This document shows positions 16,006 to 34,139 of a DNA stretch of 64,000 bases, piece by piece. The stretch is taken from contig NZ_NFJR01000001.1 in NCBI RefSeq assembly GCF_002159975.1, positions 578,030 to 642,029 of the forward strand. Reading direction: 5' to 3'. Numbering within the stretch: position 1 is the stretch's first letter; every line of letters begins with the position of its first letter. Position numbers and translations under genes: made by a program. Source of the stretch: Barnesiella sp. An22. GTDB lineage: Bacteria > Bacteroidota > Bacteroidia > Bacteroidales > Barnesiellaceae. The notes under the pieces are model-generated. The model had not been told where the DNA came from. It searched no databases and saw nothing but the letters and a program-made list of their open reading frames with translations.

Positions 16006-16506
16006 TTAAATACTTATCTTACATACAATCGGCTCGACCATAAAAGAGACTCTCTTTTCATACTGGCGACTAATCCCCAAACCTATATCGATAGCCCCGG
16101 TAATCACAACGTGCATTTCATACTTGGGCCGTTTATTCCCTACTTGATATTTCGAGGTACTCTCTTCAAGCTCAACTTTAACCTCGGGCTGTTGCAACCG
16201 TGGCTCATACGTCAGAATACTTTCCCGAATGCTCTCCTCACACTGTTTTCGAGAAATATTATCTCCTTTTGATACTCCAGACATCAAGCCCAAATAATTG
16301 TTATTAAATTCCCGAACATTGATATTCGAAAACTCATGGTTCCAATATTCAAAGCCAAACTCAGGATCAGCGTCGAAAGAACCTTTAGGCGTAAATATTA
16401 TCAAGTCCAATATGTTATCAATACTCATTTCAATATCTCCACCTTCTCGCTCAATTACGGGAGACTTATCAAATGCAATAGATAACGGGATATTGATAAA
16501 ATTCAT
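16006..16506 (-). CDS. tssE: T6SS baseplate protein TssE (gp25-like)
   Basis: A 166-aa homologue of phage T4 gp25, which starts sheath assembly on the baseplate. The order of features fits gp25: SIDNILDLIIFTPKGSF, then the acidic FGFEYW patch, then the (S)IRESILTYEPRL strand-helix segment ending in beta strands. It lies between tssK and tssF, 4 bases from the latter. Conserved EPRL with Glu is the core gp25 motif and is present. Confidence 0.85.
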   Translation of the reverse strand: MNFINIPLSIAFDKSPVIEREGGDIEMSIDNILDLIIFTPKGSFDADPEFGFEYWNHEFSNINVREFNNNYLGLMSGVSKGDNISRKQCEESIRESILTYEPRLQQPEVKVELEESTSKYQVGNKRPKYEMHVVITGAIDIGLGISRQYEKRVSFMVEPIVCKISI

Positions 16507-16521: not shown

Positions 16522-17502
16522 TTAAATTTCCTTCCTGTTTTTTCTCGGCTTCGGTAATTCCGGCTCCTTTACGACTTTTTTTTCTTCAACAACGACAGGT
16601 ACCTCTTCGACCATTTTAAAAACGGTCTCCATTTTTTGCGCTATCATACACAGCAACTCACACCCCTGCTCAATATCTTTATATACATTTCGCAAATCAT
16701 ACGGCTTCTGCATATACTGCAAAAATGGCTCCTGGTTCTCGAGATTGATGTGACAATCCAACCTGCAACCGAGTACAAATGCACTGACAAAATTCTGTAC
16801 TTCGGCATATAACTGATTCGGAGTAAGTGTATCTCGCTCCTTATCCAGCCTTATTGCAACCCGACTTATTGCCAAACAAACCTCAGACAAGAGTATGCGG
16901 GCCTCACACCTATCCGCTTGAATACATTTGACCCAAATATCTTTGGCCAAGGATTGTATTCGTCCCAACTGATTCATATACATCGGATGCGCCGAAAGAT
17001 ATAAACAAGGAGGAACAAAATCTATTTCATTCAATCTCCACCCATACTGATTTACGATACAACCAATCGGCAATGAATCGTCATCAATCTTACTGTTCAC
17101 ACCAAGGAGCTCAAATGTATATTTAGACTCGGAATACATCTCGTCGACTTCTCTCCACTCCCGTGCATACATTTTTACAACAAGAAGATATGCGTCGGAT
17201 TCATGATGTGCAGGAATCGCAATTCGAGTATCAAACGTATTTGAATAATTAGAATCAAACTCTATATCTACAATTTTTCCACTACGTGTAACACCATGAC
17301 AAGACAACGATGTTACCTCGAGAGTATTATTGTTGATATTGACCGATAACTCAAAAGGCTTAGATGTTGTAAAGAGCCCCAACCGACCGGCCGAGGTCAA
17401 CAATGCAGCCATATGCAACGTGTCTTCATAGGCATTATCGGCGGCAATAAAGACCTCAGGACTAAGCCGCATGCCTTTTTTCCAGGTTATTTTCCGAGAC
17501 AT
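16522..17502 (-). CDS. tssK: T6SS baseplate protein TssK
   Basis: TssK links baseplate to membrane complex in known T6SS. This 326-aa protein begins with the family opening (ITWKKGMRLSPEVF, comparable to the W-x-x-G-M-x-L-x-P-x-H/Q-F signature), followed by beta-rich shoulder and a helical C-terminal half. It is shorter than the ~440-aa proteobacterial form, as usual in Bacteroidetes. The last 30 residues are Lys/Glu/Pro-rich and probably flexible, a likely docking tail. It sits between tssG and tssE. Confidence 0.8.
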   Translation of the reverse strand: MSRKITWKKGMRLSPEVFIAADNAYEDTLHMAALLTSAGRLGLFTTSKPFELSVNINNNTLEVTSLSCHGVTRSGKIVDIEFDSNYSNTFDTRIAIPAHHESDAYLLVVKMYAREWREVDEMYSESKYTFELLGVNSKIDDDSLPIGCIVNQYGWRLNEIDFVPPCLYLSAHPMYMNQLGRIQSLAKDIWVKCIQADRCEARILLSEVCLAISRVAIRLDKERDTLTPNQLYAEVQNFVSAFVLGCRLDCHINLENQEPFLQYMQKPYDLRNVYKDIEQGCELLCMIAQKMETVFKMVEEVPVVVEEKKVVKEPELPKPRKNRKEI

Positions 17503-17508: not shown

Positions 17509-18381
17509 TTATATATTTGTATTATAACTCAAGTAATTATAGCACATATCGTCCGATAATCTAACCGGCAACGTATCGGTTGAAATATCGAACTTTATTT
17601 TCGATTCGATTCCGACAAAATAATCATTCAAAAAACGCTCAAATACACCGACCTCTTCGACAAAATCGAGAAAAGTCGAATCGCACATACTATCGTTCCA
17701 ATAATGAATCTTATAGGTCGTTATCTCCTCGGGGAATTCATTACCCAAATAAACTTCGTCCTCACCATTCAAATAACAACTATAACGCGGCTGTCGATCG
17801 CATACAATCTCGTTGTTTTTCTGTAATTCCAATTGCAACCCTTCTTCATTAAAGATTTTCCGACACATCAAAGACAACAAGGTTTTATCGCCTCTTATCC
17901 TACTGCATTCCGGTATAAACGATTTGGCTTTAGTTACGAATCGGTTATGGCGGTATTCATCAGGCATATCATCACAAAGGATATCGACTAAAACCTTATT
18001 GTCGGAATAGTCCCGGCACTCCATGTCCAGAACCTTACAGCTGAGGTCCAACAAAAACTCATCGAAAGGTCTAAAAAAAAGTCGGGCATTATCCTCTTCG
18101 GCCTGCTGCTCTTCACAAGCCTCATGGAATCGCTTCTCTCGCTCATTGGTCGGTATATTCTCAAATCTATCAATCGAATGAAACAGCCCCTCTGGAAGAA
18201 TATCATACAAGCCATTACGACTTATCGAAATATCATAGCCTCCTTGCTCCTCAAAAATCAACTCCAAAACATCACGATATGCCGTTCGCTTATGAGTACC
18301 ACACAGCTTTATCTGTCGTTTCTCTTGGGAGAGATAATTCAATAAAATTTCTGCTTTTAAATCAGAAGGAATATACATCAT
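17509..18381 (-). CDS. tssG: T6SS baseplate protein TssG-like
   Basis: A ~290-aa soluble protein in the position of tssG, next to tssK. The segment DILPEGLFHSIDRF resembles the TssG core in which an YHALPEALFH-like motif is followed by acidic helices. I chose the ATG at 18381 (or the adjacent 18378), just after the E1-like gene stop at 18383; the upstream extension would overlap that gene and has no similarity. The family assignment rests on this motif and on context. Confidence 0.7.
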   Translation of the reverse strand: MMYIPSDLKAEILLNYLSQEKRQIKLCGTHKRTAYRDVLELIFEEQGGYDISISRNGLYDILPEGLFHSIDRFENIPTNEREKRFHEACEEQQAEEDNARLFFRPFDEFLLDLSCKVLDMECRDYSDNKVLVDILCDDMPDEYRHNRFVTKAKSFIPECSRIRGDKTLLSLMCRKIFNEEGLQLELQKNNEIVCDRQPRYSCYLNGEDEVYLGNEFPEEITTYKIHYWNDSMCDSTFLDFVEEVGVFERFLNDYFVGIESKIKFDISTDTLPVRLSDDMCYNYLSYNTNI

Positions 18382-18382
18382 A

Positions 18383-19591
18383 CTACTCAAACAACTTCTT
18401 GTCGGCCGACAACTCCACAAAAAACTCACCTTTTTCTGTCGAGACTTTGAGGATATCGTAATGAGGGATACCTATCTGTTTCAAAGTCAAATCGAGATAT
18501 GGAAATGAGACATCGATATTTTCAAAGAATTTTTTATGGAAAATAGTTCTATAACTCAACATACGCATCTCTGTATTTCCGGCAATCACCTCGTCGAGTT
18601 TAGACTCTGGTATCCTCACTTCAAATTCCTTTTCGGGAGAGTCTGATATGATTGTTTCTATAAACTTATTATTCATCAAGTTTATTTCTACCGTTCTACA
18701 ATCACATATTTCCTTCAGTTCTATTATCGCCTCTTTGACCGACATATCGGCCGACAGATTTTCATCTGTAACAACAGGGCCCCATTTCTCATGTGAAGGA
18801 CAATTTTTTTTCCAAGAGGCAAGACGATATACATGAGTCGAATTTGTCAAGCCTTCATAATGAAACATTTTACCTTGCAATGTAGTAAAAGGCAAATGCT
18901 CCGAATCGTAAGAGTCCAGATGGATCATCTTCATTGCCTCCTGCGACTGTATTGCCCCCACAATCGATGCACTTATCGGGGTAGTTGCAACTCGTCCTTG
19001 TGAAGCCTGGGTTCTAACGACATCGGCACACCCGGTACGAAGCATGATAATATTGAACTCTTCCCGAGACAGACCACACTCATAACAATTTATTCCAGGC
19101 GTAAAAACCTTTACGACACCGGTCAGATTCTCTATACTGCCATCAATCCAAGTTTTACCAGCTCGCATGGCCATACGATTAAGCTGATAACGAGCCAACC
19201 TGCTATCCAAGCATCCAATAATAACATCGACCGACCGATACAAAGCCAATCCCACGTCCGAAAAGAGATTGCCTACGATAGGCACTACCTTGATTTGCGG
19301 ATTGATCTCCATCGCCCGTTTAGCCACGACATCAGCTTTGAATCTATGCTCAAAGGCGTCTTCCTCCCTAAAGAGAACCGATCGGGTAAGGTTACTGATC
19401 TCTATACGGTCAAAATCGACAACAAAAATATGACCTACTCCAAACAGTGTTAAATCTTTAACGACTTCATTTCCCAATGCGCCGGCTCCTACGACCAGGA
19501 CTCGAGCATCGCGTACTCGTTCTTTTTTAAACCAGGAGAGCAATGTGAATACACCCTCTCCCCACTCGTATGTGTTCGATCTTGTAGTCAC
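18383..19591 (-). CDS. E1/ThiF-like ubiquitin-like activating enzyme
   Basis: A 402-aa adenylating enzyme of the E1/ThiF/MoeB superfamily, which activates the C-terminus of a ubiquitin-like protein with ATP. The Rossmann motif GAGALG is at 35-40, the acidic strand end DFD at 59-61, and the SNLTR motif at ~66-70 supplies the Asn/Arg that contact ATP. A CYEC pair (169/172) may bind zinc with C264 and H267 (CPSH). C188 in RTGCADV lies where E1/ThiF proteins carry a thioester Cys. A ~120-aa C-terminal domain follows the adenylation domain. It lies between the 257-aa exported protein and tssG. I infer that it charges the Ubl at 27781-28104. Activation of a sulfur carrier is the alternative. Confidence 0.88.
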   Translation of the reverse strand: MTTRSNTYEWGEGVFTLLSWFKKERVRDARVLVVGAGALGNEVVKDLTLFGVGHIFVVDFDRIEISNLTRSVLFREEDAFEHRFKADVVAKRAMEINPQIKVVPIVGNLFSDVGLALYRSVDVIIGCLDSRLARYQLNRMAMRAGKTWIDGSIENLTGVVKVFTPGINCYECGLSREEFNIIMLRTGCADVVRTQASQGRVATTPISASIVGAIQSQEAMKMIHLDSYDSEHLPFTTLQGKMFHYEGLTNSTHVYRLASWKKNCPSHEKWGPVVTDENLSADMSVKEAIIELKEICDCRTVEINLMNNKFIETIISDSPEKEFEVRIPESKLDEVIAGNTEMRMLSYRTIFHKKFFENIDVSFPYLDLTLKQIGIPHYDILKVSTEKGEFFVELSADKKLFE

Positions 19592-19599
19592 GACTCTGT

Positions 19600-20328
19600 T
19601 TATTTAAGTACAAAGCCTACTTTCGCACCGATAAAAGCTCGTCCTGCGGCCATTTTATACACATCGCATCCGCCCGGTGTACAGTTGACTTTATATCGTC
19701 CATAAAAACCGATACGCATAATCATTGCCCCGACGGGTATATTCCCTCCCACTTCTACAACAGGAGCTATTAAAAAACCCGACTTTTTCACACCGTCGGC
19801 TCGACTTGCATCTATCGTGCTCCATTTCTCGGCATTGACCGTTGTATAAACCGTGGGTACCAACCCAACCGAACCATACAACGATGCATACTGATGGTTC
19901 AACTTTCCCAGTTCTATCTGCAATGGAACACCTATCTCCAACATGTTTCGCTTTAGCAAGTAGCCATAGTCGGTATGGGTAAGATCCAGCGAAAGACCGC
20001 CATTAAAATAGACATTCCCAATCAAATTTTTTTTCCAAACACCTTCGATTCCAAACTCTTTCGGGCGGTCTGGATTAAATCCAATCTGAGCCGATAACTG
20101 TATTGTACTCTCTACCGGAACCTCTTTATGGATTGAAATAATCGTAGTATCTCTTTGAAGTTCAAAAAAATCGTACAAATCGACATTATCGCGCAACCTA
20201 TATTTTACGTCTCCTTGTCCATGATAGTCAACAACATACGGACCCACATAAAAATGATCGATAGGAGTTTGTGCCATGCTTGCCATACCCCCGATGACAA
20301 GGGCTCCCAATAACAATACTTTTCTCAT
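19600..20328 (-). CDS. Exported 242-aa protein, possibly outer-membrane beta-barrel
   Basis: The start at 20328 gives a clean signal peptide (MRKVLLLGALVIGGMASMAQ); the longer start at 20373 overlaps the upstream gene and lacks one. The mature protein has alternating Gly/aromatic strands (YFNGGLSLDL, ASLYGSVGLV, MIMRIGFYGRY, AFIGAKVGFVLK) typical of small outer-membrane barrels, ending in a hydrophobic residue-rich strand. No named family was recognised. In the operon it lies between the RING/FHA fusion and the E1, so it could be the outer-membrane element of this secretion system. Confidence 0.65.
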   Translation of the reverse strand: MRKVLLLGALVIGGMASMAQTPIDHFYVGPYVVDYHGQGDVKYRLRDNVDLYDFFELQRDTTIISIHKEVPVESTIQLSAQIGFNPDRPKEFGIEGVWKKNLIGNVYFNGGLSLDLTHTDYGYLLKRNMLEIGVPLQIELGKLNHQYASLYGSVGLVPTVYTTVNAEKWSTIDASRADGVKKSGFLIAPVVEVGGNIPVGAMIMRIGFYGRYKVNCTPGGCDVYKMAAGRAFIGAKVGFVLK

Positions 20329-20359
20329 GTATTCTATAAATTTTAAATGATTATTCTGA

Positions 20360-22756
20360 TTAAACTTCTTCATATTTAAAGATGGTATCGCCTATCTTGA
20401 AGGTGTCGCCGTTACTTAAAACAGCCGTTCGATTGATTGGCAACTCGACTCTTGTATTGTATAAAACACCTGTTGCCAATGGCTTAATCACTGGGAAACC
20501 TTTCTCATGATCGATATAAAGTTGTGCATGTTCTTTTGCCACTTTATTGCTTTTTTCCCAGTTCATTTGTATTTCACACTCTCCTGTCATACCGATTGAG
20601 ACTTTATTCCCACCGCCAGTTGCATTCATCCATTTATGGATAGGAATTCTCAACCCCGATTTCACGCCGTTTTGAATCACTAAGAAATACCGTTCGGCAA
20701 TCATTCGCACCGTAATGAGCGAAGCTCCTAAACCGCCTCCATAGATAATAAAATCCAACAGCATGTTTATCCATTCGTAGCTACTGCTTGTAAACTTCGT
20801 AAAATAGAGGACCAAAAATCCTATTACGGCCGAGCATAGCCCTCCGATAAGAGCACTTCGAATCGGTATTGACGATTTTATTGTCAATGCCAAAGAGACA
20901 CTTATTGAAAATAATATATAGGCTGGCAGCGAACAATACCAGGGTATATAGGTCTTTCCCGTCCATGATAATATCAGGCAAAACAAATCGGCTCCAATAG
21001 CAAATGCTATCATACCGATAAAAGCCGTAAGGACAGAAAGCCCTACAATCTTAAGCCATATTTGCCAATTCTTATTACGAATATCATCCTTGTACCTAAA
21101 GACCAACGAAATAAAGAATCCTAACAGGAGTCCTATCATCAAAAAAGAAGAGGTGCGCGTAACACAATCATTGATAAGGAATGTTTGAGCATTGGTTTCA
21201 TCAAAAACAAATCCAACAATCAACCGAGACAGCTCCGGGAATCCCCCCCGGCCACATGCTTCATAGATAACCCAACTAATCAACCCGGCCAAAATCCCGG
21301 CTATAGTCTGTGAGCAATCTTTCAACGTACTCCATCTAAACAGATCGGCCCATTCTACATGGTTCTGAATTCCCGTTTTGCAGTTTTGTCCAAACTCAGC
21401 ACACTTATATCCGTTCTCCTCCCAGCAATGCTTATGCATCCAGTGATTACATTTCGTTACAATAATTTGTCCCGGCCTCAATTCTTGTTTGCAGTAATGA
21501 CAAATACGTCTTTGAACATTTTCTTCTGGCTCGTATCTCTTATAATACTTCGACTTGAATGTCATAAACCGGATATAGGGTACAATGACTTTCATAATGA
21601 TGAAGAAAAATGCAAAAGCAAGTACCGCTACCAATATCGCTACCAGAAACTCGACCAATATACTTGTCGAACTTTGTTCTCGCTCGGGCCACGGCCGCTC
21701 TGCCGATCCTATGGTAAACGTAGCGTCACCTACCATATTACGTCCCCACTTCGCACTATAATTGACATTGCCAGAATATATCTTATTCGGGTTAGCAATA
21801 TAAGTCAACTCGTAGTCGTATGTAGCGTCTTCTATTACTTGCTCAAACGAAGAGAGTACATTCTCCATACTTGCCGACGGCAAGTATCGGCCCCGCAAGG
21901 AAGGAATAATGCGATTAGTACTATCCTTAGGCTGTGTAATACCGTCAAGCGTAATGTCTATGCTCGTATCTTCTCCATCGGCTGTATAGTAAAAAGCATA
22001 TACGCGAGGCATTTCATCGGCATACTTAGACTGATAATCGGATACTTTTATATAATCCAACTCTTCATCATCGGGCCGGCGGCTGCCTTCGGCAAAAATC
22101 ATCAGAATATTCTTACCCGGATTCGTTGCCGCCCGAGAACAAATTAATGGATTTGGGGTATAATCTACCGATTTCACCTCATCCATATACTCTGCTTGAG
22201 CCGGAGAAAACTCCGCTAACTTGGAATAGACACCACTATAAAAAGCCTTACCGGTAATCGTATCCAAGAAAGCCGATTCGATACGGTCGAAATTCTCGGT
22301 CGTTGCCTGTACACTATTGGTTACCCCATCGCCATAAAAAGAGATAAATACACTGGTATCTGCAGCAACTTCAATAAATTGTCTTATTGTATTCAATATT
22401 TGTTGCTTTCCATCTCTCGGAATACTCTGATCTAAGAGAATCGAAAATGTATATTCCTTGGGAATTCGCACGCCAGTTCTGATTTGACGCACCTTCCTAT
22501 CTTGAACTTCCTGGCCATCTTCATAAAAATAGAACATCTCATCGATTCTATCCGACGATACATTGGGTTGTCTTTTCCCATCATCCCCCAGTATATTAAA
22601 ATAAATCTTTATCGAATCATTCCCCAGCCCATAATTATAGCTCCGATCACAAAACTGAATGCTTGAAACCATAACTTCTTGGGCAAACATAGGAAAGCCC
22701 AATAGCACAACTCCTAACAACAGGAGCAATTTACTTATCTTTTTCTTCGTGTCCAT
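20360..22756 (-). CDS. vWA / RING-H2-like / multi-membrane / FHA fusion protein
   Basis: A 798-aa membrane protein. A signal peptide (to about 26) leads to an extracytoplasmic von Willebrand A-like domain (about 100-320; MIDAS-like DQS at 109-111 with Pro in place of the second Ser). A transmembrane helix (about 366-393) leads to a cytoplasmic zinc module: C419, C422, C436, H438, H441, C444, C452, C459, in the RING-H2 ligand order except that the last pair is C-x6-C. Five or six further helices (about 485-685) follow, then a C-terminal FHA domain (about 705-798; GNKVSIG, then a KEHAQL core, then SNGDTFKIGD). FHA domains bind phosphothreonine, and RING domains act as E3 ligases; both roles here are inferred. 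It overlaps the JAMM gene by 22 bases. Confidence 0.8.
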   Translation of the reverse strand: MDTKKKISKLLLLLGVVLLGFPMFAQEVMVSSIQFCDRSYNYGLGNDSIKIYFNILGDDGKRQPNVSSDRIDEMFYFYEDGQEVQDRKVRQIRTGVRIPKEYTFSILLDQSIPRDGKQQILNTIRQFIEVAADTSVFISFYGDGVTNSVQATTENFDRIESAFLDTITGKAFYSGVYSKLAEFSPAQAEYMDEVKSVDYTPNPLICSRAATNPGKNILMIFAEGSRRPDDEELDYIKVSDYQSKYADEMPRVYAFYYTADGEDTSIDITLDGITQPKDSTNRIIPSLRGRYLPSASMENVLSSFEQVIEDATYDYELTYIANPNKIYSGNVNYSAKWGRNMVGDATFTIGSAERPWPEREQSSTSILVEFLVAILVAVLAFAFFFIIMKVIVPYIRFMTFKSKYYKRYEPEENVQRRICHYCKQELRPGQIIVTKCNHWMHKHCWEENGYKCAEFGQNCKTGIQNHVEWADLFRWSTLKDCSQTIAGILAGLISWVIYEACGRGGFPELSRLIVGFVFDETNAQTFLINDCVTRTSSFLMIGLLLGFFISLVFRYKDDIRNKNWQIWLKIVGLSVLTAFIGMIAFAIGADLFCLILSWTGKTYIPWYCSLPAYILFSISVSLALTIKSSIPIRSALIGGLCSAVIGFLVLYFTKFTSSSYEWINMLLDFIIYGGGLGASLITVRMIAERYFLVIQNGVKSGLRIPIHKWMNATGGGNKVSIGMTGECEIQMNWEKSNKVAKEHAQLYIDHEKGFPVIKPLATGVLYNTRVELPINRTAVLSNGDTFKIGDTIFKYEEV

Positions 22757-24831
22757 ATTTTTAATTCATCAATATTTACATCCCCGTAAAAACGCTCATC
22801 CATGACAACGTCGCCGTTAACAACAGGTATTGAAGTCAATGTCATTAACTTGGAAGAGTACACTAATACAAAATCTATATCCGCACAGATAGGAATAATC
22901 AGCCGTTGGATTGTCGGTAAACTCATATGCGTAATACTCACAAGACACCCTACAACTCCAGTAGCGGGTCTATCATGAACTCTGACCAGACTCGACACTA
23001 TATACTCTTTCCCATTTTCCGTATCAACCGGAAATCCGACAGCCCAACCGACCAGTCCCGTATTAGGCTCTATGGTAATCTGTGTCAAGTCAATAATCGC
23101 ATTGTTATTCACCTCGATCCCAAAGCATGAAGCTGCCCGTGCGTTGGCTGTTTTCAATATATTATAGAAATTATCAGGAATAAAGGATTTACGCTCACTG
23201 CCCAATGCCCATTTGTACATCTCTTCCAAAGAGTACATCTTTAATAAATCGCCTTTCGAATTGATTGTTCCATCTCCTCTAAATGTAAATATACCTAACT
23301 CCTGATTCGACGTCAAAATATCCACGACAAAAGCGACTAAGAAATTGGGATGTTGCGAATGTTTTAACTGCATCTGCACATTACTATCCGAGTTACTGAA
23401 AAAGACCCCAAGCCCCGGATGGGAATGAATCCAACATGTCAGATCATATTGCAAATTGGTATCTTTTCTCAATTTCCGAAGTTTTTCGGCAATGCGCAAT
23501 TTTATTTTCCCCCCGAAATTCAACTCATACTCCTTAAATACAGCATCATCTCCAGGAAACACAACATACTCTAATGAAACATCGTAGGTATGCGTAGCCT
23601 CATCTTGTACCCAACGTCCCAACACCATACAGCCATCTTCTTTAGGGTTGTCGGCATTACGCAAATCTTCGGCATATAAATTGTACACATCTTTGATACA
23701 TGTATTCTTTATATAGATGCGACGAACAGCCGAATCATTCGAAAAATCAGCCGAATCAATCATCAAATAATCCGGGTTATTGACAACATCATCGAGACTC
23801 TGTTTTTTCAAAACAGATGTGGTCTTTCTACGGACAACAATCGCAGCATTCGCCTCTTCTTGCGTTTGATGTTCGGGAACTGACTTCCCCGAATTCTTAC
23901 TTACTCGCTTCCCCTTTTTCCGCTTGTTTACGGCTATAATTATCCATATGACCAAAATCAATACAATTCCACCGACAAGGCCATAATTAAGCAAATCATG
24001 CTTATTAAGGAAACTCTGTGAATCGGCATTATACACATCGGTCACCAAATCATTCAACTGGTTATAGGCATCTTCACGATTTCGCAACCGATTATTCAAT
24101 GTCTCAACGACATAGTTGATTAAAGTTTCCTGACCCGAAATCGTCGTGGTTTTCGAAATAGCAACAATTTCCTGTGCTACAATAGGAATTTCAATGCGCT
24201 TCTGATTAATCTCGGCTATCGAATTTTTCAGAAATTCATCTAAATCGTAATCTATTACAAATTGTTTCTTGTCTTGCGAAGCTAAAAGAGCCTGTGAAAA
24301 ACGATCTACCTGATCAATATAGGCTTGAACAGATTCAATTCCAAAAAATTCATCCCTATTCATTCGATCCAGATAGCTCTCCGAAACTACCCCCTCTTGC
24401 TTTGACGGCTGACGTTCTTGTTTTTTGTTAACCCTCGCTTGCGATATGCGTGGCAACGACTCGGTTACCGTATCGACACTCTCCTTCTCGATTTCTGACG
24501 AACTGACAGCTTCGACTTTAGGCGCAACATACCTCCACAGTAAGGCACCACTACTTCTCGGATAGTCAAACCGGACAGACTGTCGGGCAATCTGATTAAC
24601 CTGTGCACTCGACTCTCGATTAATTGTTTTCGATTCTTTATTATCAATATATAATATAACTCGTTTCGAAGATTTATTCCAAATATTCAACACTTTGATG
24701 CTACTGTCAGCCTGAATCTCATAAGATATGGTAACATCGTTCTTTGAAACCTGCTTTCCCCAAACGGTCTCCGAACAAATACTAACCCATAGCAATAGTA
24801 GGATTAGTGCATATAACTGTTTACATTTCAT
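22735..24831 (-). CDS. Membrane-anchored JAB/JAMM-domain isopeptidase candidate
   Basis: A 698-aa membrane protein. A signal peptide (about 1-25) leads to a ~250-aa exported region, one transmembrane helix (about 284-301), a basic stop-transfer stretch, and a cytoplasmic part with a JAB/MPN+ domain (about 380-530). The JAMM metal motif is complete: H469, H471, S479 and D482 in HSHPGLGVFFSNSD. The likely catalytic Glu is E398 in PKEDGCMVLG. JAMM enzymes cleave isopeptide bonds of ubiquitin-like proteins. Residues 530-698 form another domain of unknown type. The gene abuts the 401-aa gene (24832) and overlaps the RING/FHA gene. Membrane attachment puts the putative deconjugase at the secretion apparatus. 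Confidence 0.85.
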   Translation of the reverse strand: MKCKQLYALILLLLWVSICSETVWGKQVSKNDVTISYEIQADSSIKVLNIWNKSSKRVILYIDNKESKTINRESSAQVNQIARQSVRFDYPRSSGALLWRYVAPKVEAVSSSEIEKESVDTVTESLPRISQARVNKKQERQPSKQEGVVSESYLDRMNRDEFFGIESVQAYIDQVDRFSQALLASQDKKQFVIDYDLDEFLKNSIAEINQKRIEIPIVAQEIVAISKTTTISGQETLINYVVETLNNRLRNREDAYNQLNDLVTDVYNADSQSFLNKHDLLNYGLVGGIVLILVIWIIIAVNKRKKGKRVSKNSGKSVPEHQTQEEANAAIVVRRKTTSVLKKQSLDDVVNNPDYLMIDSADFSNDSAVRRIYIKNTCIKDVYNLYAEDLRNADNPKEDGCMVLGRWVQDEATHTYDVSLEYVVFPGDDAVFKEYELNFGGKIKLRIAEKLRKLRKDTNLQYDLTCWIHSHPGLGVFFSNSDSNVQMQLKHSQHPNFLVAFVVDILTSNQELGIFTFRGDGTINSKGDLLKMYSLEEMYKWALGSERKSFIPDNFYNILKTANARAASCFGIEVNNNAIIDLTQITIEPNTGLVGWAVGFPVDTENGKEYIVSSLVRVHDRPATGVVGCLVSITHMSLPTIQRLIIPICADIDFVLVYSSKLMTLTSIPVVNGDVVMDERFYGDVNIDELKIWTRRKR

Positions 24832-26037
24832 CTATATAGATTTTCTATTTGATTTATTCTGCTTTTGAGAGATATCCCGTATCTCTTTATATAATTTACT
24901 CTTCCCTGTATCAGTCATTCGATGTGTTTGATTACGCACACCTTCGCGTACTCTTCTGTTCGCTTCATTTTCGGCTTGCTTGGCCAAGGACTGTTGCATC
25001 TCCAGAATACTCCGTTGATTCTTCAAATCCCGAATATGTTTAAGTACCATATTCCCCCCAAAATATAAAGCTATCAGAATCACTCCACCTATAATCATCC
25101 AGACGGTTCGCTTTTGCTGTTTTGCTTCTTCGATTCTGGTCTCTTCTTCTTGTTTCTGTTGCCTGGCCTCTTCCTCTTGCTTCTGCTGGGCCAACCAGGC
25201 CTGCTCCTCGGCCTTAGCCGCCATATTATCGGCCTCTTGCTGCTCCTTCAACTCTTTTTCCTTAGCGGTATATTCAAGCAATACATCATTGATTTTCTCG
25301 ATAACTTCCTGATTATCTATCCTGTTTTTCAACATCCGTAAGTTATAGACTTCCATTTGAAGTGTTTGAGAAAAGGGTAATTCATTTGCTGTAGCCAACA
25401 ACTGACGAATCATATCCATACTACTTAATGCGTTTATAATATCACCATTATTCTCTTCCAATTCACTTGACGAATGAATAGCAATATGTTCCACATGAGT
25501 ACTCTTTTCGGGTGGTGTCCGATGACCTTTCGTCGTCTCGGCGATCTGAACCTTTAATGCTACAGTTCCTCGCCCTACAATTTTGTAAGTTTTTTTCTTT
25601 TCGTATACTGCTATAAAAACAGGAAATTCGACAGTCGAGTTCTTACTGCTCTTCTTACCAAACACAATAGGAGCCGATTGGCCCAAAATGTAAAAGCCCT
25701 CTTTATTTTTTTTGTAACTCAGATTGGCCGGCACCATAAATGTCGTGGGATTTAATCCACCCCATTCGACATCGCCAAAGTCGCCCACTCGGTCGAAGAT
25801 AACGACCTTTAGCCTATCCAAATCGCCCTTGCATAAGCGACGTAGATACTCCGAGGGAATAATGCGAGGAGATTCCAATATCTTAAATGCCACATTACCA
25901 TCCTCTTCAAAAACGCCGTAATTCAGTATTATCTTATCTTTTCGACTGGTATACAAAGTATCGGTAACCGAGGTCGCAAACAATACAGTCGAAGAGATAG
26001 CCCACAAAAAAAATACTACAAATACAGGGAAACGCAT
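24832..26037 (-). CDS. Exported coiled-coil protein with one membrane helix
   Basis: A 401-aa protein with a signal peptide (cleavage near LFA), a beta-rich extracytoplasmic domain (about 25-165), a linker, a Gln/Glu/Lys-rich coiled coil (about 250-310, e.g. QQKQEEEARQQ), a transmembrane helix (about 313-334) and a basic cytoplasmic tail (about 335-401). The topology puts the coiled coil in the periplasm next to the membrane. This resembles membrane-complex components of T6SS (TssO/TssP-like size and architecture), but I see no family signature. It ends immediately before the JAMM gene begins (one base). I infer a structural part of the envelope complex. Confidence 0.6.
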   Translation of the reverse strand: MRFPVFVVFFLWAISSTVLFATSVTDTLYTSRKDKIILNYGVFEEDGNVAFKILESPRIIPSEYLRRLCKGDLDRLKVVIFDRVGDFGDVEWGGLNPTTFMVPANLSYKKNKEGFYILGQSAPIVFGKKSSKNSTVEFPVFIAVYEKKKTYKIVGRGTVALKVQIAETTKGHRTPPEKSTHVEHIAIHSSSELEENNGDIINALSSMDMIRQLLATANELPFSQTLQMEVYNLRMLKNRIDNQEVIEKINDVLLEYTAKEKELKEQQEADNMAAKAEEQAWLAQQKQEEEARQQKQEEETRIEEAKQQKRTVWMIIGGVILIALYFGGNMVLKHIRDLKNQRSILEMQQSLAKQAENEANRRVREGVRNQTHRMTDTGKSKLYKEIRDISQKQNKSNRKSI

Positions 26038-26047
26038 AACTTCAATT

Positions 26048-27091
26048 TTAGAAATTGATTATTCGCTCATAATAATCGTTGATTTTTCCACTATAAAAAC
26101 TATCGCGTCCCCGTCTCCGATTCTGGTGATAACAATTATGCAACGCTCGAGCAGTCTTAACAGCTTCGTCTTTAGTGATACGCCCGGTATGCAATCGCTG
26201 ATACGTATCGTCAAGTCTATGGTATATTTGCTCTGTACTCAAAGAGCAATAGCCACACCGGTGTACCCGTTTATGCTTGCCACAATCTGATACATACTCG
26301 TCAAGATTTACAGATTCGATTTCTTGCTTCAAACGTGTATATGCCTGATGCGGTAAATCTTGAGACATCCACGGATTACTCTTGAAAATGCTGTCTATGA
26401 CCAATATCATGCTATCCTTAATGGCCTGGTATGGTCTTTGCTGGTCAACTAATGAAGGCTTGTGCATTTTGTTTCCACAAAATTTCACATTTTTCAAACG
26501 TGCCTTAAAATCCGATATAGTCCGCTTCACACCCACATAGGTAGGGTCCAGTTCGCTCCAACCGTCTATTTCCAAAATGAATTTTATGTTATCTTCCCTC
26601 AATATTCGATATTTTGCCGAGCGTAAAAATCCCCTAGGAACATATTTCGCAATATAAAACGGAATAAGTAACTCGGAAGGTTCCGACACCGAGCCTTCGA
26701 AAACAAACAGTTCCCGAGTTTCAGCCGGTTCTATTCGTTCAAAAATATTCTTTACATTCCGGCATCCCGAAACAAACCGATGCCCTTTCTCGCCACCATA
26801 AGTTTTTTCAAACAGGACCTTAGGCTTACGTTTTTTAAGCATCTTCTCGTCTTGGGTACTATTAAAAAGCAAGACCGTCTGTGATGGCGTCAGGTTCTCT
26901 ACCGAAACTTCCACTTGGGCCTGGTTATTATAAACGGTAGTAAAATGGAAGGTTACTGCCGCATATCCCAAATCTACAGTCTGCGTTTCATGCCCCTGCC
27001 TGTCGAGTTTAACAAGAACCTCCTGATCGGCCCATGCAACTGATCCGGTGAATAGGACACAACATAGCAACAATATAAACTTCCTTATCAT
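26048..27091 (-). CDS. Exported protein with C-terminal Cys/His cluster
   Basis: A 347-aa protein with a signal peptide (cleavage near WAD). The N-terminal half is a beta-rich domain (about 25-200). Around residues 268-280 is C-x3-H-x3-H-x-C-x2-C (CGKHKRVHRCGYC), a candidate zinc site or disulfide cluster. The C-terminal 60 residues are helical and basic. No known family is recognised. Its start overlaps the E2-like stop by 4 bases (ATGA), so it is translationally coupled to it. It probably belongs to the same envelope complex as the adjacent 401-aa protein. Confidence 0.6.
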   Translation of the reverse strand: MIRKFILLLCCVLFTGSVAWADQEVLVKLDRQGHETQTVDLGYAAVTFHFTTVYNNQAQVEVSVENLTPSQTVLLFNSTQDEKMLKKRKPKVLFEKTYGGEKGHRFVSGCRNVKNIFERIEPAETRELFVFEGSVSEPSELLIPFYIAKYVPRGFLRSAKYRILREDNIKFILEIDGWSELDPTYVGVKRTISDFKARLKNVKFCGNKMHKPSLVDQQRPYQAIKDSMILVIDSIFKSNPWMSQDLPHQAYTRLKQEIESVNLDEYVSDCGKHKRVHRCGYCSLSTEQIYHRLDDTYQRLHTGRITKDEAVKTARALHNCYHQNRRRGRDSFYSGKINDYYERIINF

Positions 27092-27759
27092 ATATTTTTG
27101 GCAATAATTTTAGAACTTGTTTTCGTAATGCGCTCCTCTGGTTTTTCTCTCAAATTGCCTTTCTCGGACTCTCCTTCATCCGACATGCTTTGTCCAAAGC
27201 GTACCCATCCGTTCGGTTCACCTTCTTCTCGTACCCATTCGGCTACATTCTGGTCCTCGGGATAAGGATAAGTATTTTGTGCATGATACAGCTGATACTT
27301 CAAATACTGTTCAACACGAAGTACTAAATCTTTCAAGGAAGAAAGGACTCCCATCTCCTTAATAGTCAAGCACACATGGCCTTTAAAACTACCCGAATAG
27401 CGAATATTTGGATGCCAAATATCGGTACGGAACGTAAATATGGGATTTCCATCGGCCGAAGGATAGTTATTGGGAAGCACAATACTCATTTTATGCAGAT
27501 ACCCGAAAACAGGCTCTCTCGGTATCGTGTTGCCCTTAACACCAACAATCGACTTCACTCTATACCAAATCTCATATTCGGTAGGCAATCCCATTACATT
27601 CTTACGCCTGATAATATACGAGATGGAAGGCTGACGTGGATTGTCGGCTGCTGCCTTCCGTTTTGCGCACAACGAATCAAGTTCTTTCCACTCTTTCCAA
27701 AGGCGGGCATCTCGACCAGAAAGTTCTTTCTGATTAAACTTATTTATCGCTTCGTTCAT
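27088..27759 (-). CDS. E2/UBC-like ubiquitin-like conjugating enzyme
   Basis: A 223-aa E2 (UBC fold) protein. It has the signature of the family: a PNNYP turn (about 96-100), the HPN motif at 116-118 (WHPNI) and the catalytic Cys in GHVCL at C130, followed by a helix (SLKDLVLRVEQYL). HPN supplies the Asn that stabilises the oxyanion in eukaryotic E2 enzymes, and its presence shows a canonical rather than remote E2. The C-terminal ~50 residues are basic and disordered. The gene follows the Ubl gene by 21 bases and overlaps the next one. I infer that it carries the Ubl as a thioester and passes it to a target, probably with the RING-like protein. Confidence 0.9.
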   Translation of the reverse strand: MNEAINKFNQKELSGRDARLWKEWKELDSLCAKRKAAADNPRQPSISYIIRRKNVMGLPTEYEIWYRVKSIVGVKGNTIPREPVFGYLHKMSIVLPNNYPSADGNPIFTFRTDIWHPNIRYSGSFKGHVCLTIKEMGVLSSLKDLVLRVEQYLKYQLYHAQNTYPYPEDQNVAEWVREEGEPNGWVRFGQSMSDEGESEKGNLREKPEERITKTSSKIIAKNI

Positions 27760-27780
27760 AATAAAATCGTTTATATTTTA

Positions 27781-28104
27781 TTACCCGGCAATAGGAACTG
27801 AAATAAGATGTAAATGATCTCCAGGTTGGATGTTGTAATCGATGAGAGCTTGCTCACGACCATCTACATCTTCAAACTCAAGAATCTTATCCTCTCCGTC
27901 ATCCATAAATTGACCCAATAAATACTGAATCGGATTACCCCCATTATCCAATTTAGGCAATTCGAATACGGCAACAATACTCGCAATCTGATCGCGTATT
28001 GTTTTTTGAGGGTCTGTTACTTTCACCTCCACTTCTTCGTAAGGAGAACCATCGATAGTCAAATTGACGATGAATTCATCGTCGTAGTCTTGCTTGTTTT
28101 CCAT
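27781..28104 (-). CDS. Ubiquitin-like beta-grasp protein
   Basis: A 107-aa acidic protein with a predicted beta-grasp fold. A beta hairpin (residues ~10-30) is followed by a helix and a late segment DVDGREQALIDYNIQPGDHLHLI, which matches the Ub-type L-x-DYxIxxGDxLHL strand/turn. The C-terminus is ...PIAG, ending in a single Gly that an E1 could adenylate without processing. An ATG at 28104 is preferred over a GTG two codons upstream. YukD/EsaB proteins of type VII systems also have this fold and are not conjugated; that is the main alternative. The E1, E2 and JAMM genes around it favour conjugation. Confidence 0.85.
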   Translation of the reverse strand: MENKQDYDDEFIVNLTIDGSPYEEVEVKVTDPQKTIRDQIASIVAVFELPKLDNGGNPIQYLLGQFMDDGEDKILEFEDVDGREQALIDYNIQPGDHLHLISVPIAG

Positions 28105-28143
28105 AATCACTTATTATTTATTTTGATATATTTTTTTATCGGT

Positions 28144-29154
28144 TCACCATATCCAGGCCCCGTGAGGCTGGTCATAATTTTCTGAACGATAATCTTCAAA
28201 CTTATTCTTAAAAACAATCATTTGATATGCCGTTGCGGGTATTACCTGAGGGACCTTAAGTCCATAGCGGAATAAAGCCAATTCATACTTCTTTGCCTCG
28301 CCATCGATACGAATGATAAAATCGCTCTTCGTATCCCGATGAATTCCATAAAACCGATCGAAGATTTCGCAAATCTTCACCTCATCAAACCAAAAGTATG
28401 CACTATATTCACACTTGCCTACATGCCATTTAACAGCCAATCGTTTAGGCTTACCTGCCTCGTGATAATTCATCAGCCTACCATCGTGAAGTTTATCGTA
28501 AGTCCCGTCATAAAGCGACTCCTCGCACCAATCAAGTTGAGGTCTTAACGGGTCCTCTTCTTTATATGGCTCCCATTTATCTCCATCCCATTTCTCCAAC
28601 ATCGGGAAGTATCGGTAGACAAACTGCTGCATATATTTTACAAACAAACTCTTCGGAGGGAGCCCCCCATGAAGTATATTTTGCTTAACATCATCAAATT
28701 TTTCAATACACTCTTCACAATAGTCGTTCAACGAGACTCCTTCGATCGATGGAGCAAATTGATCCATACCGACATTTATCTCTTCCCCTATATAAGAATC
28801 TATATATTTACTTTTCAATGGGCCACAAACCCAGACAACAACCAATCCATATGGAGCCATCCCTATCACAATATGTGTTACAGGATACTCCGAGATACAT
28901 TCTCGTAAATACGAATCTCTCAACCGTTCTTCAACTGAATAAAACTTTTTTTCAACAACAGACAGATACACTACATCAAGGATTTGGGGAACCGTGTCGT
29001 CTTCATCCTCCAAAATATGAGTAGAGAGTATTCTACCCCATTCTCCCTTAAACGGATATCTGTGAGGTATCTCTCTTACTTTATCCTTTGTATACAACAA
29101 CCCAAAAAAGGTATCAACCGGATATAGAGTATGTGCCGACCCTGATATTTTCAT
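28144..29154 (-). CDS. DUF2931-family protein, candidate immunity to the lipase effector
   Basis: A 336-aa protein with features I recognise from DUF2931 (YPV near the start, GEWGR, ILDVVYLSVVEKKFY, VIGMAPYGLVVVWVCG). DUF2931 proteins are frequent in Bacteroidetes T6SS loci. It has no signal peptide or lipobox, although many relatives are lipoproteins. Its ATG overlaps the stop of the Tle1-like gene by 4 bases (ATGA), giving tight coupling. Toxin-immunity pairs are often arranged so, hence I infer immunity or an accessory function. It could instead be an adaptor for loading. Confidence 0.72.
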   Translation of the reverse strand: MKISGSAHTLYPVDTFFGLLYTKDKVREIPHRYPFKGEWGRILSTHILEDEDDTVPQILDVVYLSVVEKKFYSVEERLRDSYLRECISEYPVTHIVIGMAPYGLVVVWVCGPLKSKYIDSYIGEEINVGMDQFAPSIEGVSLNDYCEECIEKFDDVKQNILHGGLPPKSLFVKYMQQFVYRYFPMLEKWDGDKWEPYKEEDPLRPQLDWCEESLYDGTYDKLHDGRLMNYHEAGKPKRLAVKWHVGKCEYSAYFWFDEVKICEIFDRFYGIHRDTKSDFIIRIDGEAKKYELALFRYGLKVPQVIPATAYQMIVFKNKFEDYRSENYDQPHGAWIW

Positions 29155-30854
29155 AATAAATCTATTAGAGTTGTTACAACCGGCTGTTCCGAAAATATTC
29201 CTTGATAAACCAATCGAGTAAGAATTGATTGCTCGTCCTGATCTTCTGAATTATATACATAAGGAGCATTTACAAGCCATTGGTTCGATGAGAGTGTTGC
29301 CAAACGCTCATTGGCCGAATAATGTAAATATTTTCTTCTCAAATGAGCATAATCCGATGGAGATATTGCAATACGGCCGCTCCTGCCACTCTGCATCTGA
29401 GTTTTTGCCTTATTATATACCTCCTCGACAATATTATCTGTCGGTATTGGGAACAGTTCGGTTCTAAAATTGAACATGTCACACCGTTCCTTTACGGCAT
29501 CCTCAACCATCAATGCTAAAGAGACATTGCTATAACCATATTGCACATGTCGAAACATGCTGATATTAAAAGTCCCTTCGGTATAGTAATTTCCCAAATT
29601 TCCCGCAAGAGATTCATTGAACTCATCAACCTGTTTATCTTCGTCAATCCACCCCATTTCTATCAATGTATCAACCGTTACGGGTTGTTGTGTGTCTGGA
29701 TTTGCCGGATCTACGCAGATAAAGCGAAGATTTTGCCGTGTATTATCCTCATTTTCTCTTAAAAAGAAATTCATAGGAGTCAGCATCGTATTCTTCACTT
29801 TTTGCGAAACTATTTTTACCCCGGCAAAATCCACTTTATTGATAATTGCAGGTTCATCTCTTCCCATAGATATACCTCCTCCAATATCGGTATGACAACC
29901 CGGGAGAAACAATTCCAAACCATTAGAATGGACTGAACTCTCTATATCGATAATTGCGAAATTTTTTCTCAATTCGTCCATCCCGCACAAGTGCACTACT
30001 CGCCGGCACATATCTGTCGCCCAAAGTCCATATTGGGCCACATTATCACTATGTACGACTCCAACGGATCCTACCGTATCAAAAATTCCCAGATATTCTA
30101 CCTCTTTCGATTCTATATCTTTCTCGGGTTGCAATTTCTTGACAAACGAGTCACTATTTTTCTTAAGTTCCTCATTCCCGGATTTTTGAGCTATTTTATC
30201 ACTATAAACGATATAATTAAATATTCTCGCAGCCGTTGCACCTCGACTAAAACCAAAGACATCGAAATGCAACCTATATTTCTGACCATTTGGTTTCGAT
30301 GACAAGATAAAATTAGATATAAAATCCAAAGCTTTACCTACTTTTGCCACAACGCCATTATCTCCTGCACCTAAAGCCAATCCTATGAAATCAGCTCCGG
30401 TACTGTCAAAATCCATATCACTCCCCGACCCTTCTACATACAACGAATAATGAGTCGCATCCGTCTTATAAAAAGACTCAAGTATGGCTACATTAGTATA
30501 CGATACATTTTGAGAATTGCTATTTCTATACTTCCCATACACTTCGTCCGAAACCTTATCGTCCAATATTTCAGCAACCTCTCTATTCTCGGCTTCATCT
30601 TTCGATTTTGACGAAATTGCATATCTTTTCCTATCGTCTTGGAGTAGCTGCTCTTGACTCTGCTGATCCACATAGGCAAAGCCTTTGGCATTAACTTTAC
30701 TTTCTTGGCGAAATCTCCTCCCTATGGCAGCCTGTACCTTATTGTTATTTGTTCCATCAAAGAAAATACCGATATAAATATCTACAACAGTCATCTCCTG
30801 CAGCATCGACTCCTTCTCTATATCTTTTCCTCCAATGGTAGCACTCATCTCCAA
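29151..30854 (-). CDS. Tle1-like (DUF2235) lipase effector
   Basis: A 567-aa alpha/beta-hydrolase of the DUF2235/Tle1 type, the family of T6SS phospholipases that attack membranes of rival cells. The N-terminal FFDGTNNN motif, the nucleophile elbow GFSRGA (GxSxG) with catalytic Ser at about residue 206, and LPGCHTDIGGG with the His and Asp near residue 325 are all present, so the triad appears complete. It has no signal peptide, as expected for a T6SS cargo. It lies between the PAAR-like gene and the DUF2931 gene. I infer that it rides the VgrG-PAAR tip. An ATG at 30848 is an alternative start. Confidence 0.88.
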   Translation of the reverse strand: MEMSATIGGKDIEKESMLQEMTVVDIYIGIFFDGTNNNKVQAAIGRRFRQESKVNAKGFAYVDQQSQEQLLQDDRKRYAISSKSKDEAENREVAEILDDKVSDEVYGKYRNSNSQNVSYTNVAILESFYKTDATHYSLYVEGSGSDMDFDSTGADFIGLALGAGDNGVVAKVGKALDFISNFILSSKPNGQKYRLHFDVFGFSRGATAARIFNYIVYSDKIAQKSGNEELKKNSDSFVKKLQPEKDIESKEVEYLGIFDTVGSVGVVHSDNVAQYGLWATDMCRRVVHLCGMDELRKNFAIIDIESSVHSNGLELFLPGCHTDIGGGISMGRDEPAIINKVDFAGVKIVSQKVKNTMLTPMNFFLRENEDNTRQNLRFICVDPANPDTQQPVTVDTLIEMGWIDEDKQVDEFNESLAGNLGNYYTEGTFNISMFRHVQYGYSNVSLALMVEDAVKERCDMFNFRTELFPIPTDNIVEEVYNKAKTQMQSGRSGRIAISPSDYAHLRRKYLHYSANERLATLSSNQWLVNAPYVYNSEDQDEQSILTRLVYQGIFSEQPVVTTLIDLL

Positions 30855-30856
30855 TC

Positions 30857-31234: not shown

Positions 31235-31242
31235 ATCAACAC

Positions 31243-31551: not shown

Positions 31552-31558
31552 TATATTG

Positions 31559-33583: not shown

Positions 33584-33590
33584 AATACTG

Positions 33591-34076: not shown

Positions 34077-34090
34077 AGTCTTGAGAATAT

Positions 34091-34129
34091 CTCATAAGGG
34101 GATATTCTGCGAGAAAAGCCCCTTATGAG
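34091..34129 (-). promoter_or_regulatory. Hairpin between the two tssD genes
   Basis: Perfect 11-bp inverted repeat CTCATAAGGGG (34091-34101) and CCCCTTATGAG (34119-34129) with a 17-base loop. No T-run follows on the minus strand, so it is more likely an mRNA-stability or attenuation element than a terminator. It could raise the level of the upstream, probably main, Hcp transcript. Confidence 0.75.
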
Positions 34130-34139
34130 AAAAATTAAA

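What the first reader, a model, noticed from the sequence alone, without database searches (positions are those of the whole stretch)
18383..28110. Complete ubiquitin-like conjugation cassette inside a T6SS operon
Seen: in one minus-strand operon there are a ubiquitin-like protein (27781-28104), an E2 with HPN and Cys (27088-27759), an E1/ThiF-like enzyme (18383-19591), a RING-H2-like protein (20360-22756) and a JAMM protease (22735-24831), with tssB, C, D, H and I upstream and tssG, K, E and F downstream. Known: bacterial E1/E2/JAB/Ubl operons act in antiphage defence (for example Bil and CBASS-linked systems), and Ub-like proteins occur in type VII systems (YukD/EsaB). Inference: here a Ubl could be conjugated to an apparatus part or effector to control assembly, firing or sheath recycling. 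I know of no well-described T6SS with its own full Ub-like cascade, but cannot rule out earlier reports.
Basis: partly seen in the sequence, partly recalled or inferred. Interest (0 to 1): 0.97.

Follow-up and report, generated by a model that had tools for sequence, protein, structure and literature searches.

The report
T6SS with its own ubiquitin-like cascade
Inside one operon for a bacterial type VI secretion machine (a molecular spear gun) sit genes for a ubiquitin-like tag, its E1 and E2 enzymes, a membrane RING protein and a tag-removing protease; the same set lies beside the machine's structural genes in dozens of related genomes in which the usual membrane-anchor gene tssN was not detected, and it is predicted to tag a machine part reversibly at the membrane.

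Summary
One minus-strand T6SS operon (tssH,B,C,D,D,I ... tssG,K,E,F) holds a beta-grasp Ubl ending in Gly, an HPN/Cys E2, a ThiF-type E1, a JAMM protease and a RING-H2 protein, plus three predicted envelope proteins. The RING protein is predicted to be an inner-membrane protein: periplasmic vWA, RING, TM bundle, FHA. It is not a local accident: 47 of 57 E2 relatives have tss genes nearby, and in 49 of 49 of the closest the detected genes keep one order. Catalytic residues are conserved; all 120 listed Ubl homologues end in Gly. Cassette divergence tracks sheath and baseplate genes (r 0.58-0.93) but not VgrG/PAAR (-0.24 to 0.21). TssN, hub of the known Bacteroidota T6SS membrane complex, is below cut-off in 36 of 36 cassette genomes tested, against 20 of 23 tssC genomes with it in a phylum sample. 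Best reading: a dedicated, reversible, membrane-bound Ubl-conjugation module acting where TssN normally docks the baseplate. Conjugation, target and effect are untested. Exceptions: a nested T6SS without the cassette (G222) and a cassette without tss genes nearby (L008). No listed paper of ten searches reports it; six lists were capped and key papers were not held.

The parts
27781..28104 (-). Ubl: 107-aa ubiquitin-like protein ending in ...VPIAG
   Evidence: AF2 pLDDT 83.7; beta-grasp matches; C-terminal Gly in the 120 homologues listed of 533 found
27088..27759 (-). E2 ubiquitin-conjugating enzyme-like, WHPN and C130
   Evidence: UQ_con E=4.2e-6, just under the cut-off; H116, P117, N118 and C130 in 58 of 58; profile matches E2 structures, UBE2K among the best
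26048..27091 (-). 'peri': signal-peptide protein, no family, predicted periplasmic
   Evidence: overlaps the E2 gene by 4 bases
24832..26037 (-). 'EssA-like': signal peptide, predicted periplasmic part, one TM helix (EssA hit below cut-off)
22735..24831 (-). JAMM/JAB protease with signal sequence and one TM helix before the JAB domain (predicted deconjugase)
   Evidence: JAMM residues in 51 of 51; TM about 278-305
20360..22756 (-). RING protein, candidate E3: signal peptide, periplasmic vWA (about 94-313), TM, RING-H2 (419-459), TM bundle, cytosolic FHA (about 688-798); topology predicted
19600..20373 (-). 'OMP': signal-peptide protein, small outer-membrane-barrel-like (inferred), between RING and E1
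   Evidence: no Pfam hit; similar-sized secreted proteins at the same place in L049 and G041, with only weak HMM scores
18383..19591 (-). E1/ThiF-like activating enzyme, C188
   Evidence: ThiF E=9.6e-49; C188 in 52 of 52; best PDB matches are UBA7 and the SUMO E1
17509..18381 (-). tssG; its ATG lies one base after the E1 stop codon
   Evidence: no Pfam hit; HMM finds the gene beside tssK in tssN-type loci; sequence
16522..17502 (-). tssK; directly between tssG and tssE, with no room for tssN
   Evidence: Pfam T6SS_VasE below cut-off; HMM
16006..16506 (-). tssE (gp25)
14226..16001 (-). tssF
   Evidence: no meaningful Pfam hit; HMM finds the gene beside tssE in other T6SS loci
13074..14219 (-). 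peptidoglycan-binding protein with C-terminal TM segments
   Evidence: PG_binding_1, hydropathy
10460..11965 (-). membrane Ser/Thr protein kinase
   Evidence: Pkinase E=1.8e-45; HQDIKPAN and DFG in the sequence
29151..30854 (-). Tle1-like phospholipase effector (variable slot)
   Evidence: PF09994 E=1.8e-17
30857..31234 (-). PAAR-like DUF4280
31559..33583 (-). tssI/VgrG
33591..34544 (-). two tssD/Hcp genes
   Evidence: PF17642
34595..36001 (-). tssC
   Evidence: PF17541 E=1.1e-128
35991..36560 (-). tssB
   Evidence: no meaningful Pfam hit; HMM finds the gene beside tssC in tssN-type loci
36535..38778 (-). tssH/ClpV

Best explanation
The cassette is a ubiquitin-like conjugation gene set kept with the core genes of a distinct clade of Bacteroidota type VI secretion systems in which tssN is not detected, and it most likely attaches its Ubl reversibly to a structural part of the machine at the inner membrane. 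Inferred route: the E1 adenylates the exposed C-terminal Gly and forms a thioester at C188; the Ubl passes to C130 of the E2; the inner-membrane RING protein would bring E2~Ubl to a target at the membrane-baseplate junction (TssK, TssG and TssF are the prime candidates, inferred), licensing docking or assembly; the membrane-tethered JAMM protease would remove the tag. The periplasmic vWA domain and the secreted partner proteins would sense or hold the envelope side. Shown here: gene content, conserved motifs, fixed order, co-divergence with the core, no TssN over cut-off. Inferred: conjugation, the target, and control of assembly.
For: Of 57 E2 relatives, 47 have at least one tss gene in the fetched stretch, 44 have all five Ub genes, 32 have tss-side genes on both flanks, and in L001-L049 the detected genes keep one order in 49 of 49. 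E2, E1, JAMM and RING residues are invariant or nearly so; the 120 listed Ubls of 533 found all end in Gly. Pairwise divergence of seven cassette proteins correlates with TssB, C, G and K (0.58-0.93) but not with VgrG/PAAR (-0.24 to 0.21). TssN: 0 of 36 cassette genomes over cut-off, against 20 of the 23 tssC genomes among 345 of the phylum. TssG and TssK adjoin (gap at most 113 bases) in 38 of 38 loci where both were found, and TssK and TssE (gap at most 86) in 14 of 14. In G041 the recognised frames from tssH to tssF are core tss genes, one 557-aa protein and the cassette. The own genome has one match to the E2 profile. The TssN hub of the known type has a Ub-fold domain and binds TssK (PMC10781749, passages).
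Against: No conjugate has been seen. G222 lies inside the cassette clade on the TssC tree yet has neither the E2 nor TssN, so the machine genes can persist without the cassette. L008 (E2 87% identical) has the cassette with no tss gene found within about 10 kb. Eight of 57 loci (L050-L057, two of them contigs of about 5 kb) are related cassettes without tss genes found, so the module has other uses. The Ubl ends in Ala-Gly, not Gly-Gly. The FHA lacks the usual Arg and Ser of phosphothreonine pockets (motif recalled; M in 98 and I in 20 of 120 at 723), so phospho-control through it is doubtful. ClpV, with only 6 sequences, correlated with VgrG (0.62) and PAAR (0.52) as well as with the cassette (0.90-0.97). 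Relatedness of species can by itself produce correlated distances; no significance test was made. TssQOPR were not searched.
Confidence: 0.5

Rival explanations
1. Antiphage defence module lodged in the T6SS locus: the Ubl would be put on phage proteins, as in Bil (recalled), and the T6SS link is only shared residence.
For: Bacterial Ubl pathways named Bil and Bub are treated as known or putative immune pathways (PMC13373217, passages). One related cassette without tss genes (G358, L088) sits beside an nSTAND1 NTPase and an ion channel.
Against: One order of the detected genes in 49 of 49 loci, a 1-base junction of E1 with tssG and co-divergence with the tss core are not expected of a passenger. 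No PADLOC model matched the Ubl, E2, JAB or RING protein at E<=0.1, though that library may hold no Bil model; the E1 matched only E1-E2 fusion models in part.
Confidence: 0.12
2. The Ubl tags or escorts effectors (or the VgrG/PAAR tip), controlling loading rather than the apparatus.
For: The cassette starts right after the PAAR/effector slot (window 28144-31234).
Against: Its divergence does not follow VgrG or PAAR (-0.24 to 0.21) and follows sheath and baseplate genes; a Tle1-like gene was recognised in only 13 of the 57 loci, so the effector varies while the cassette stays.
Confidence: 0.13
3. The envelope proteins matter and the Ubl is a non-covalent scaffold, as YukD/EsaB and EccD are in T7SS; the enzymes serve another chemistry.
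For: Ub-fold subunits of T7SS lack a C-terminal Gly-Gly motif, and EsaB is essential for T7SSb (PMC11217815, passages). The Ubl here also lacks Gly-Gly; it ends in Ala-Gly.
Against: The C-terminal Gly is kept in the 120 listed homologues, and E1, E2, RING and JAMM residues are kept, which a scaffold would not need. L022 carries a 4-residue tail after IAG and L050 one after IAG, as a processed precursor would.
Confidence: 0.1
4. Conjugation acts in tube or sheath turnover (on TssB/C, Hcp or ClpV clients), not at the membrane junction.
For: TssC and TssB have many lysines kept at 95% or more, and their divergence tracks E1 and RING (0.81-0.87).
Against: The candidate E3 and the JAMM protein are predicted inner-membrane proteins; the downstream genes are baseplate genes. 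TssC lysines may be kept for other reasons.
Confidence: 0.12

Closest known systems
T6SS-iii of Bacteroidota with the TssNQOPR membrane complex (PMC10781749)
   Same: Same core genes (tssB, C, D, E, F, G, H, I, K). TssN has a Ub-fold cytosolic domain and binds TssK; TssR has a vWA domain (paper sections 6 and 11 and passages).
   Different: No TssN over cut-off in the 36 cassette genomes tested. The Ubl is a free protein with E1, E2, RING and JAMM partners. The RING and Ubl profiles do not align with a 4-sequence TssN profile.
Bil (BilABCD) and Bub bacterial ubiquitin-like systems
   Same: Ubl, E1, E2 and JAB genes in one operon.
   Different: BilA has two Ubl domains, BilD two adenylation domains, and BilB a CEHH motif (PMC11354881, passages); here one Ubl domain, one ThiF stretch and an HPN E2, plus a RING membrane protein and three predicted envelope proteins, inside a T6SS operon.
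Type VII secretion Ub-fold subunits YukD/EsaB and EccD
   Different: [quoted passage not shown] that T7SS loci have no E1/E2 is recalled. Here the Ubl ends in a conserved Ala-Gly and has E1, E2, RING and JAMM partners.
Prokaryotic E1/E2/RING/JAB operons with YukD-like Ubls (Burroughs, Iyer and Aravind 2011; recalled, paper not held)
   Same: Same enzyme kinds; the cassettes without tss genes found here (L050-L057, L088, L090) are probably of this kind.
   Different: I recall no T6SS link there, but could not read it.
CHFR-type FHA-RING ligases of animals
   Same: FHA plus RING in one protein (PMC2258000, listing and abstract start).
   Different: Soluble, without vWA or TM bundle (recalled); an architectural analogy only.

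Membership tests
T6SS (general) | sheath, tube, spike, baseplate and ClpV genes in one locus | tested here: met
T6SS-iii (TssNQOPR type) | TssN present | tested here: not met
   PF17555: 0 in the own genome; 0 of 36 cassette genomes over cut-off, one weak hit below it. Positive controls: over cut-off in 6 genomes of 295 and 21 of 345
T6SS-iii (TssNQOPR type) | TssQ, O, P, R present | not tested
   only TssN was searched by family
Ubiquitin-like modifier | beta-grasp fold | tested here: met
   predicted model and fold matches
Ubiquitin-like modifier | exposed C-terminal Gly | tested here: met
   120 listed homologues of 533 found; 49 of 49 aligned sequences, one with a 4-residue tail; Ala-Gly, not Gly-Gly
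Ubiquitin-like modifier | covalent conjugation | not testable with these tools
   needs biochemistry
E2 enzyme | HPN motif and catalytic Cys | tested here: met
   58 of 58
E1 (ThiF fold) | adenylation domain and catalytic Cys | tested here: met
   C188 in 52 of 52; that C188 is the catalytic one is inferred
JAMM protease | E, HxHx7Sx2D | tested here: met
   51 of 51; motif recalled; Pfam score below cut-off
RING E3 | eight zinc ligands | tested here: met
   120 listed homologues of 393 found; 48 to 51 of 51 in the locus alignment; Pfam scores below cut-off
RING E3 | ligase activity with this E2 | not testable with these tools
   needs biochemistry
Bil | two-Ubl BilA and two-domain E1 BilD | tested here: not met
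   107-aa Ubl with one domain; 402-aa E1 with one ThiF stretch; definition from passages
CBASS type II | CD-NTase and E1-E2 fusion Cap2 (definition recalled) | tested here: not met
   E1 and E2 are separate genes; no cyclase family in the listed hits of the 30 window genes scanned
YukD/EsaB | YukD Pfam or PDB sequence match | tested here: inconclusive
   no YukD family at E<=0.5 and no YukD row in the 60 shown of 168

The most novel reading that the evidence does not exclude
A third kind of T6SS membrane complex: the envelope-spanning cassette (outer-membrane-like protein, periplasmic and single-TM proteins, JAMM-TM protein, vWA-RING-TM-FHA protein) replaces TssNQOPR and anchors the machine by covalent, reversible Ubl conjugation of the baseplate. 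TssN's built-in Ub-fold dock would here be a detachable, enzyme-loaded tag, so assembly at the membrane is switched by a eukaryote-style E1-E2-RING cascade.
Probability: 0.27. Interest if true: 0.96.

Novelty: new variant of a known kind. Interest (0 to 1): 0.88.

Why it matters
It would be a secretion machine with its own complete ubiquitin-like cascade, including a candidate RING E3 and a deconjugase, and a T6SS clade in which the membrane hub typical of its phylum is not found. It makes two open questions testable: what anchors T6SSs that lack both TssJLM and TssN, and what bacterial E1-E2-RING systems do outside phage defence. Two named isolates (Xylanibacter muris PMUR, L010, and Palleniella intestinalis PINT, L041; titles) carry the cassette beside tss genes, so gene removals are feasible.

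Tried and rejected
Homology of the RING protein or the Ubl to TssN: profile comparison gave nothing (probability 0.5% and 0.1%; the TssN profile had only 4 sequences). The fold lists for the Ubl and RING models name no TssN row; this was not used as evidence.

A Pfam model of prokaryotic E2s (PF14461) rang neither in the own genome nor in any control genome; it tells nothing.

PpkA-Fha style phospho-switch (PMC5995506, passages): a kinase gene lies in the window operon, but the FHA lacks the usual phosphothreonine-pocket Arg/Ser, and no kinase was recognised in G041's stretch after tssF (HMMs only, no Pfam). Kept only as a possibility.

A shortened TssK as a sign of a lost membrane-complex contact: 13 of 19 complete TssK frames at cassette loci are 323-326 aa and one is 351, but five are 410-415 aa (start calls not checked), and G041 keeps the segment. 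Inconclusive.

Conserved lysines as target clue: none kept at 95% or more in TssG, TssE or PAAR-like, one in VgrG, three in TssK and Hcp2, five in Hcp1, many in TssB, TssC and ClpV. Not informative.

Single capture of the cassette by T6SS: the E2 tree fits (support 0.71), but the E1 tree puts L049 with cassettes lacking tss genes (support 0.93). Undecided.

Spread on plasmids or phages: no match to the E2 in either collection at E<=1e-5. Promoter and terminator scans of 26000-39800 gave no more than shuffled sequence.

Contractile-injection link of cassettes without T6SS: an eCIS gene cluster lies on the same contig, about 20 to 50 kb from the cassette, in two genomes of one genus (G358, G452). 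gp19 hits came in 7 of 17 genomes, G013 and G671 being one genome counted twice; in G671, G674 and G676 the hit contig I fetched differs in length from the cassette contig, and G670 was not compared.
Full report
WHAT IS THERE. The minus strand from 38.8 kb down to 8.7 kb reads as one T6SS locus: tssH, tssB, tssC, two tssD, tssI, a 102-aa frame, a PAAR-like gene, a Tle1-like effector and a DUF2931-like gene; then ubl, E2, 'peri', 'EssA-like', JAB, RING, 'OMP', E1; then tssG, tssK, tssE, tssF, a peptidoglycan-binding protein, a glucosaminidase-LysM protein, a protein kinase and a WG-repeat-like protein (below cut-off). Genes overlap or touch: JAB/RING by 22 bases, RING/OMP by 14, E2/peri by 4, and the tssG ATG follows the E1 stop after one base.

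CONSERVATION AND ORDER. A scan of a collection of 84,980 species genomes with the E2 gave 57 loci. By tblastn 47 of 57 have at least one tss gene, 46 a core one, 44 all five Ub genes, 32 tss-side genes on both flanks; in 49 of 49 of L001-L049 the detected genes keep one order. Exceptions: L008 (E2 87% identical, no tss gene found in about 10 kb each side), L048 (5.3-kb contig, PAAR-like only), and L050-L057, more distant cassettes without tss genes found. L049 (E2 42% identical), G041 and G158 carry the same arrangement, so the link is old within Bacteroidota.

WHAT IT FOLLOWS. In the loci, pairwise protein distances of E1, E2, Ubl, RING, JAB, EssA-like and peri correlate with TssB, TssC, TssG and TssK at 0.58-0.93, but with VgrG and PAAR-like at -0.24 to 0.21 (22-50 sequences per gene before L048 and L049 were dropped; no significance test). 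The core genes TssB, C, G and K also fail to track VgrG/PAAR (-0.07 to 0.33). ClpV (6 sequences) tracks the cassette at 0.90-0.97 but also VgrG at 0.62 and PAAR at 0.52; the DUF2931-like gene tracks the cassette at 0.17-0.43. So the spike/effector module is largely exchanged while the cassette stays with the machine. This argues against an effector as the main target and against a passenger.

NO TSSN. Bongiovanni et al. 2024 (PMC10781749; outline, sections 6 and 11 and passages seen) report that TssNQOPR form the Bacteroidota membrane complex, that tssN lies between tssK and tssG, that TssN has a Ub-fold domain and binds TssK, and that TssR has a vWA domain. In the four tssN-type loci mapped here tssN lies beside tssK, on the tssF side in three (L078, L079, L083) and on the tssG side in one (L080). 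At cassette loci neither gap leaves room: TssG-TssK at most 113 bases in 38 of 38, TssK-TssE at most 86 in 14 of 14. PF17555 gives 0 in the own genome and 0 of 36 cassette genomes over cut-off, one weak hit (mostly MAGs, completeness not told). Controls: in 345 phylum genomes 23 have TssC and 20 of those TssN over cut-off; in 295 order genomes 14 have TssC, 6 of them TssN over cut-off, 3 of them the E2 (G000, G041, G158), and none both; G013 has the E2 without TssC. Five of the 14 have neither (G216, G222, G232, G235, G284; the G232 contig is 6.6 kb and the G235 hit lies at a contig end); G216 and G284 carry kinase/FHA/PP2C/FHA-protease genes near the T6SS. In the phylum sample three more E2 genomes (G358, G452, G474) have no TssC. 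TssQOPR were not searched.

THE COUNTER-EXAMPLE. G222 has a T6SS whose TssC falls inside the cassette clade (supports 0.989-1.0) with neither the E2 nor TssN (the TssG tree agrees with weaker support, its L049 node unsupported). At that place it has an M23 peptidase, a Tsi6-like gene just under cut-off and a PAAR-Ntox46 gene. The simplest reading is loss of the cassette. Either that machine is dead, or it uses another anchor, or the cassette is regulatory rather than essential. This is why I put the stronger claim (cassette = membrane complex) at 0.27 and the weaker (reversible tagging of the machine at the membrane) at 0.5.

OTHER CASSETTES. Most cassettes without tss genes keep E1-Ubl-E2-...-JAB-RING with secreted or TM partners (L056 is rearranged) and stand beside T9SS-sorted and PorP/SprF proteins (L053, L055), SrfB/Virul_Fac proteins (L082, the same contig as L050), or nSTAND1, an ion channel, SprB-repeat proteins and, farther off, an eCIS (L088, L089, L094). 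So a membrane Ubl module predates or is independent of the T6SS link.

LITERATURE. Ten paper searches were run (titles and abstract starts seen; lists of 21, 63, 101, 110, 111 and 116 were capped) and no listed entry reports a T6SS with a Ubl cascade. The gut Bacteroidales survey PMC4714493 has zero occurrences of ubiquitin, ThiF or JAB (find). PMC1779556 (passages) links YukD with ESX secretion; [quoted passage not shown] The 2011 RING paper and the 2025-26 Bub papers were not held; the library holds only open-licence papers, so an earlier report cannot be excluded.

VERDICT.

Noticed in passing
L094 (whole) and L088:2-17669: In genome G358 a related Ub cassette (with nSTAND1 and ion-channel genes) lies about 20 kb from an eCIS gene cluster (four gp19 tubes, sheath, CIS tube protein, base-V protein, eCIS_core protein); a genome of the same genus, G452, has the same neighbourhood spread over about 50 kb. 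Possibly a second contractile-injection link; base rate not measured.
   Followed up: partly
L053:13614-17252, L055:16829-20508, L089:1173-8322: Cassettes without tss genes sit beside T9SS-sorted (CHU_C, Por_Secre_tail), SprB-repeat and PorP/SprF proteins.
   Followed up: no
L082:11382-18543: SrfB and Virul_Fac genes follow a cassette without tss genes.
   Followed up: no
L073:2961-9565 and L074:1430-7518: T6SSs of G216 and G284 have no TssN hit and carry Ser/Thr kinase, FHA, PP2C-TM and FHA-TM-trypsin genes nearby (families from L073 only): a possible further TssN-less T6SS variant.
   Followed up: partly
L049:8949-9407: A second Ubl-like protein without a C-terminal Gly beside the conjugation-type Ubl.
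   Followed up: no
L008: A close cassette (E2 87% identical) without any tss gene detected in about 10 kb on either side.
   Followed up: partly
window 38794-40953: NusG-family gene and tyrosine integrase just upstream of tssH; a mobile origin is possible, but no plasmid or phage match to the E2 was found.
   Followed up: no
window 46892-51310: Two very long frames on opposite strands (1344 and 1468 aa) overlap almost completely.
   Followed up: no
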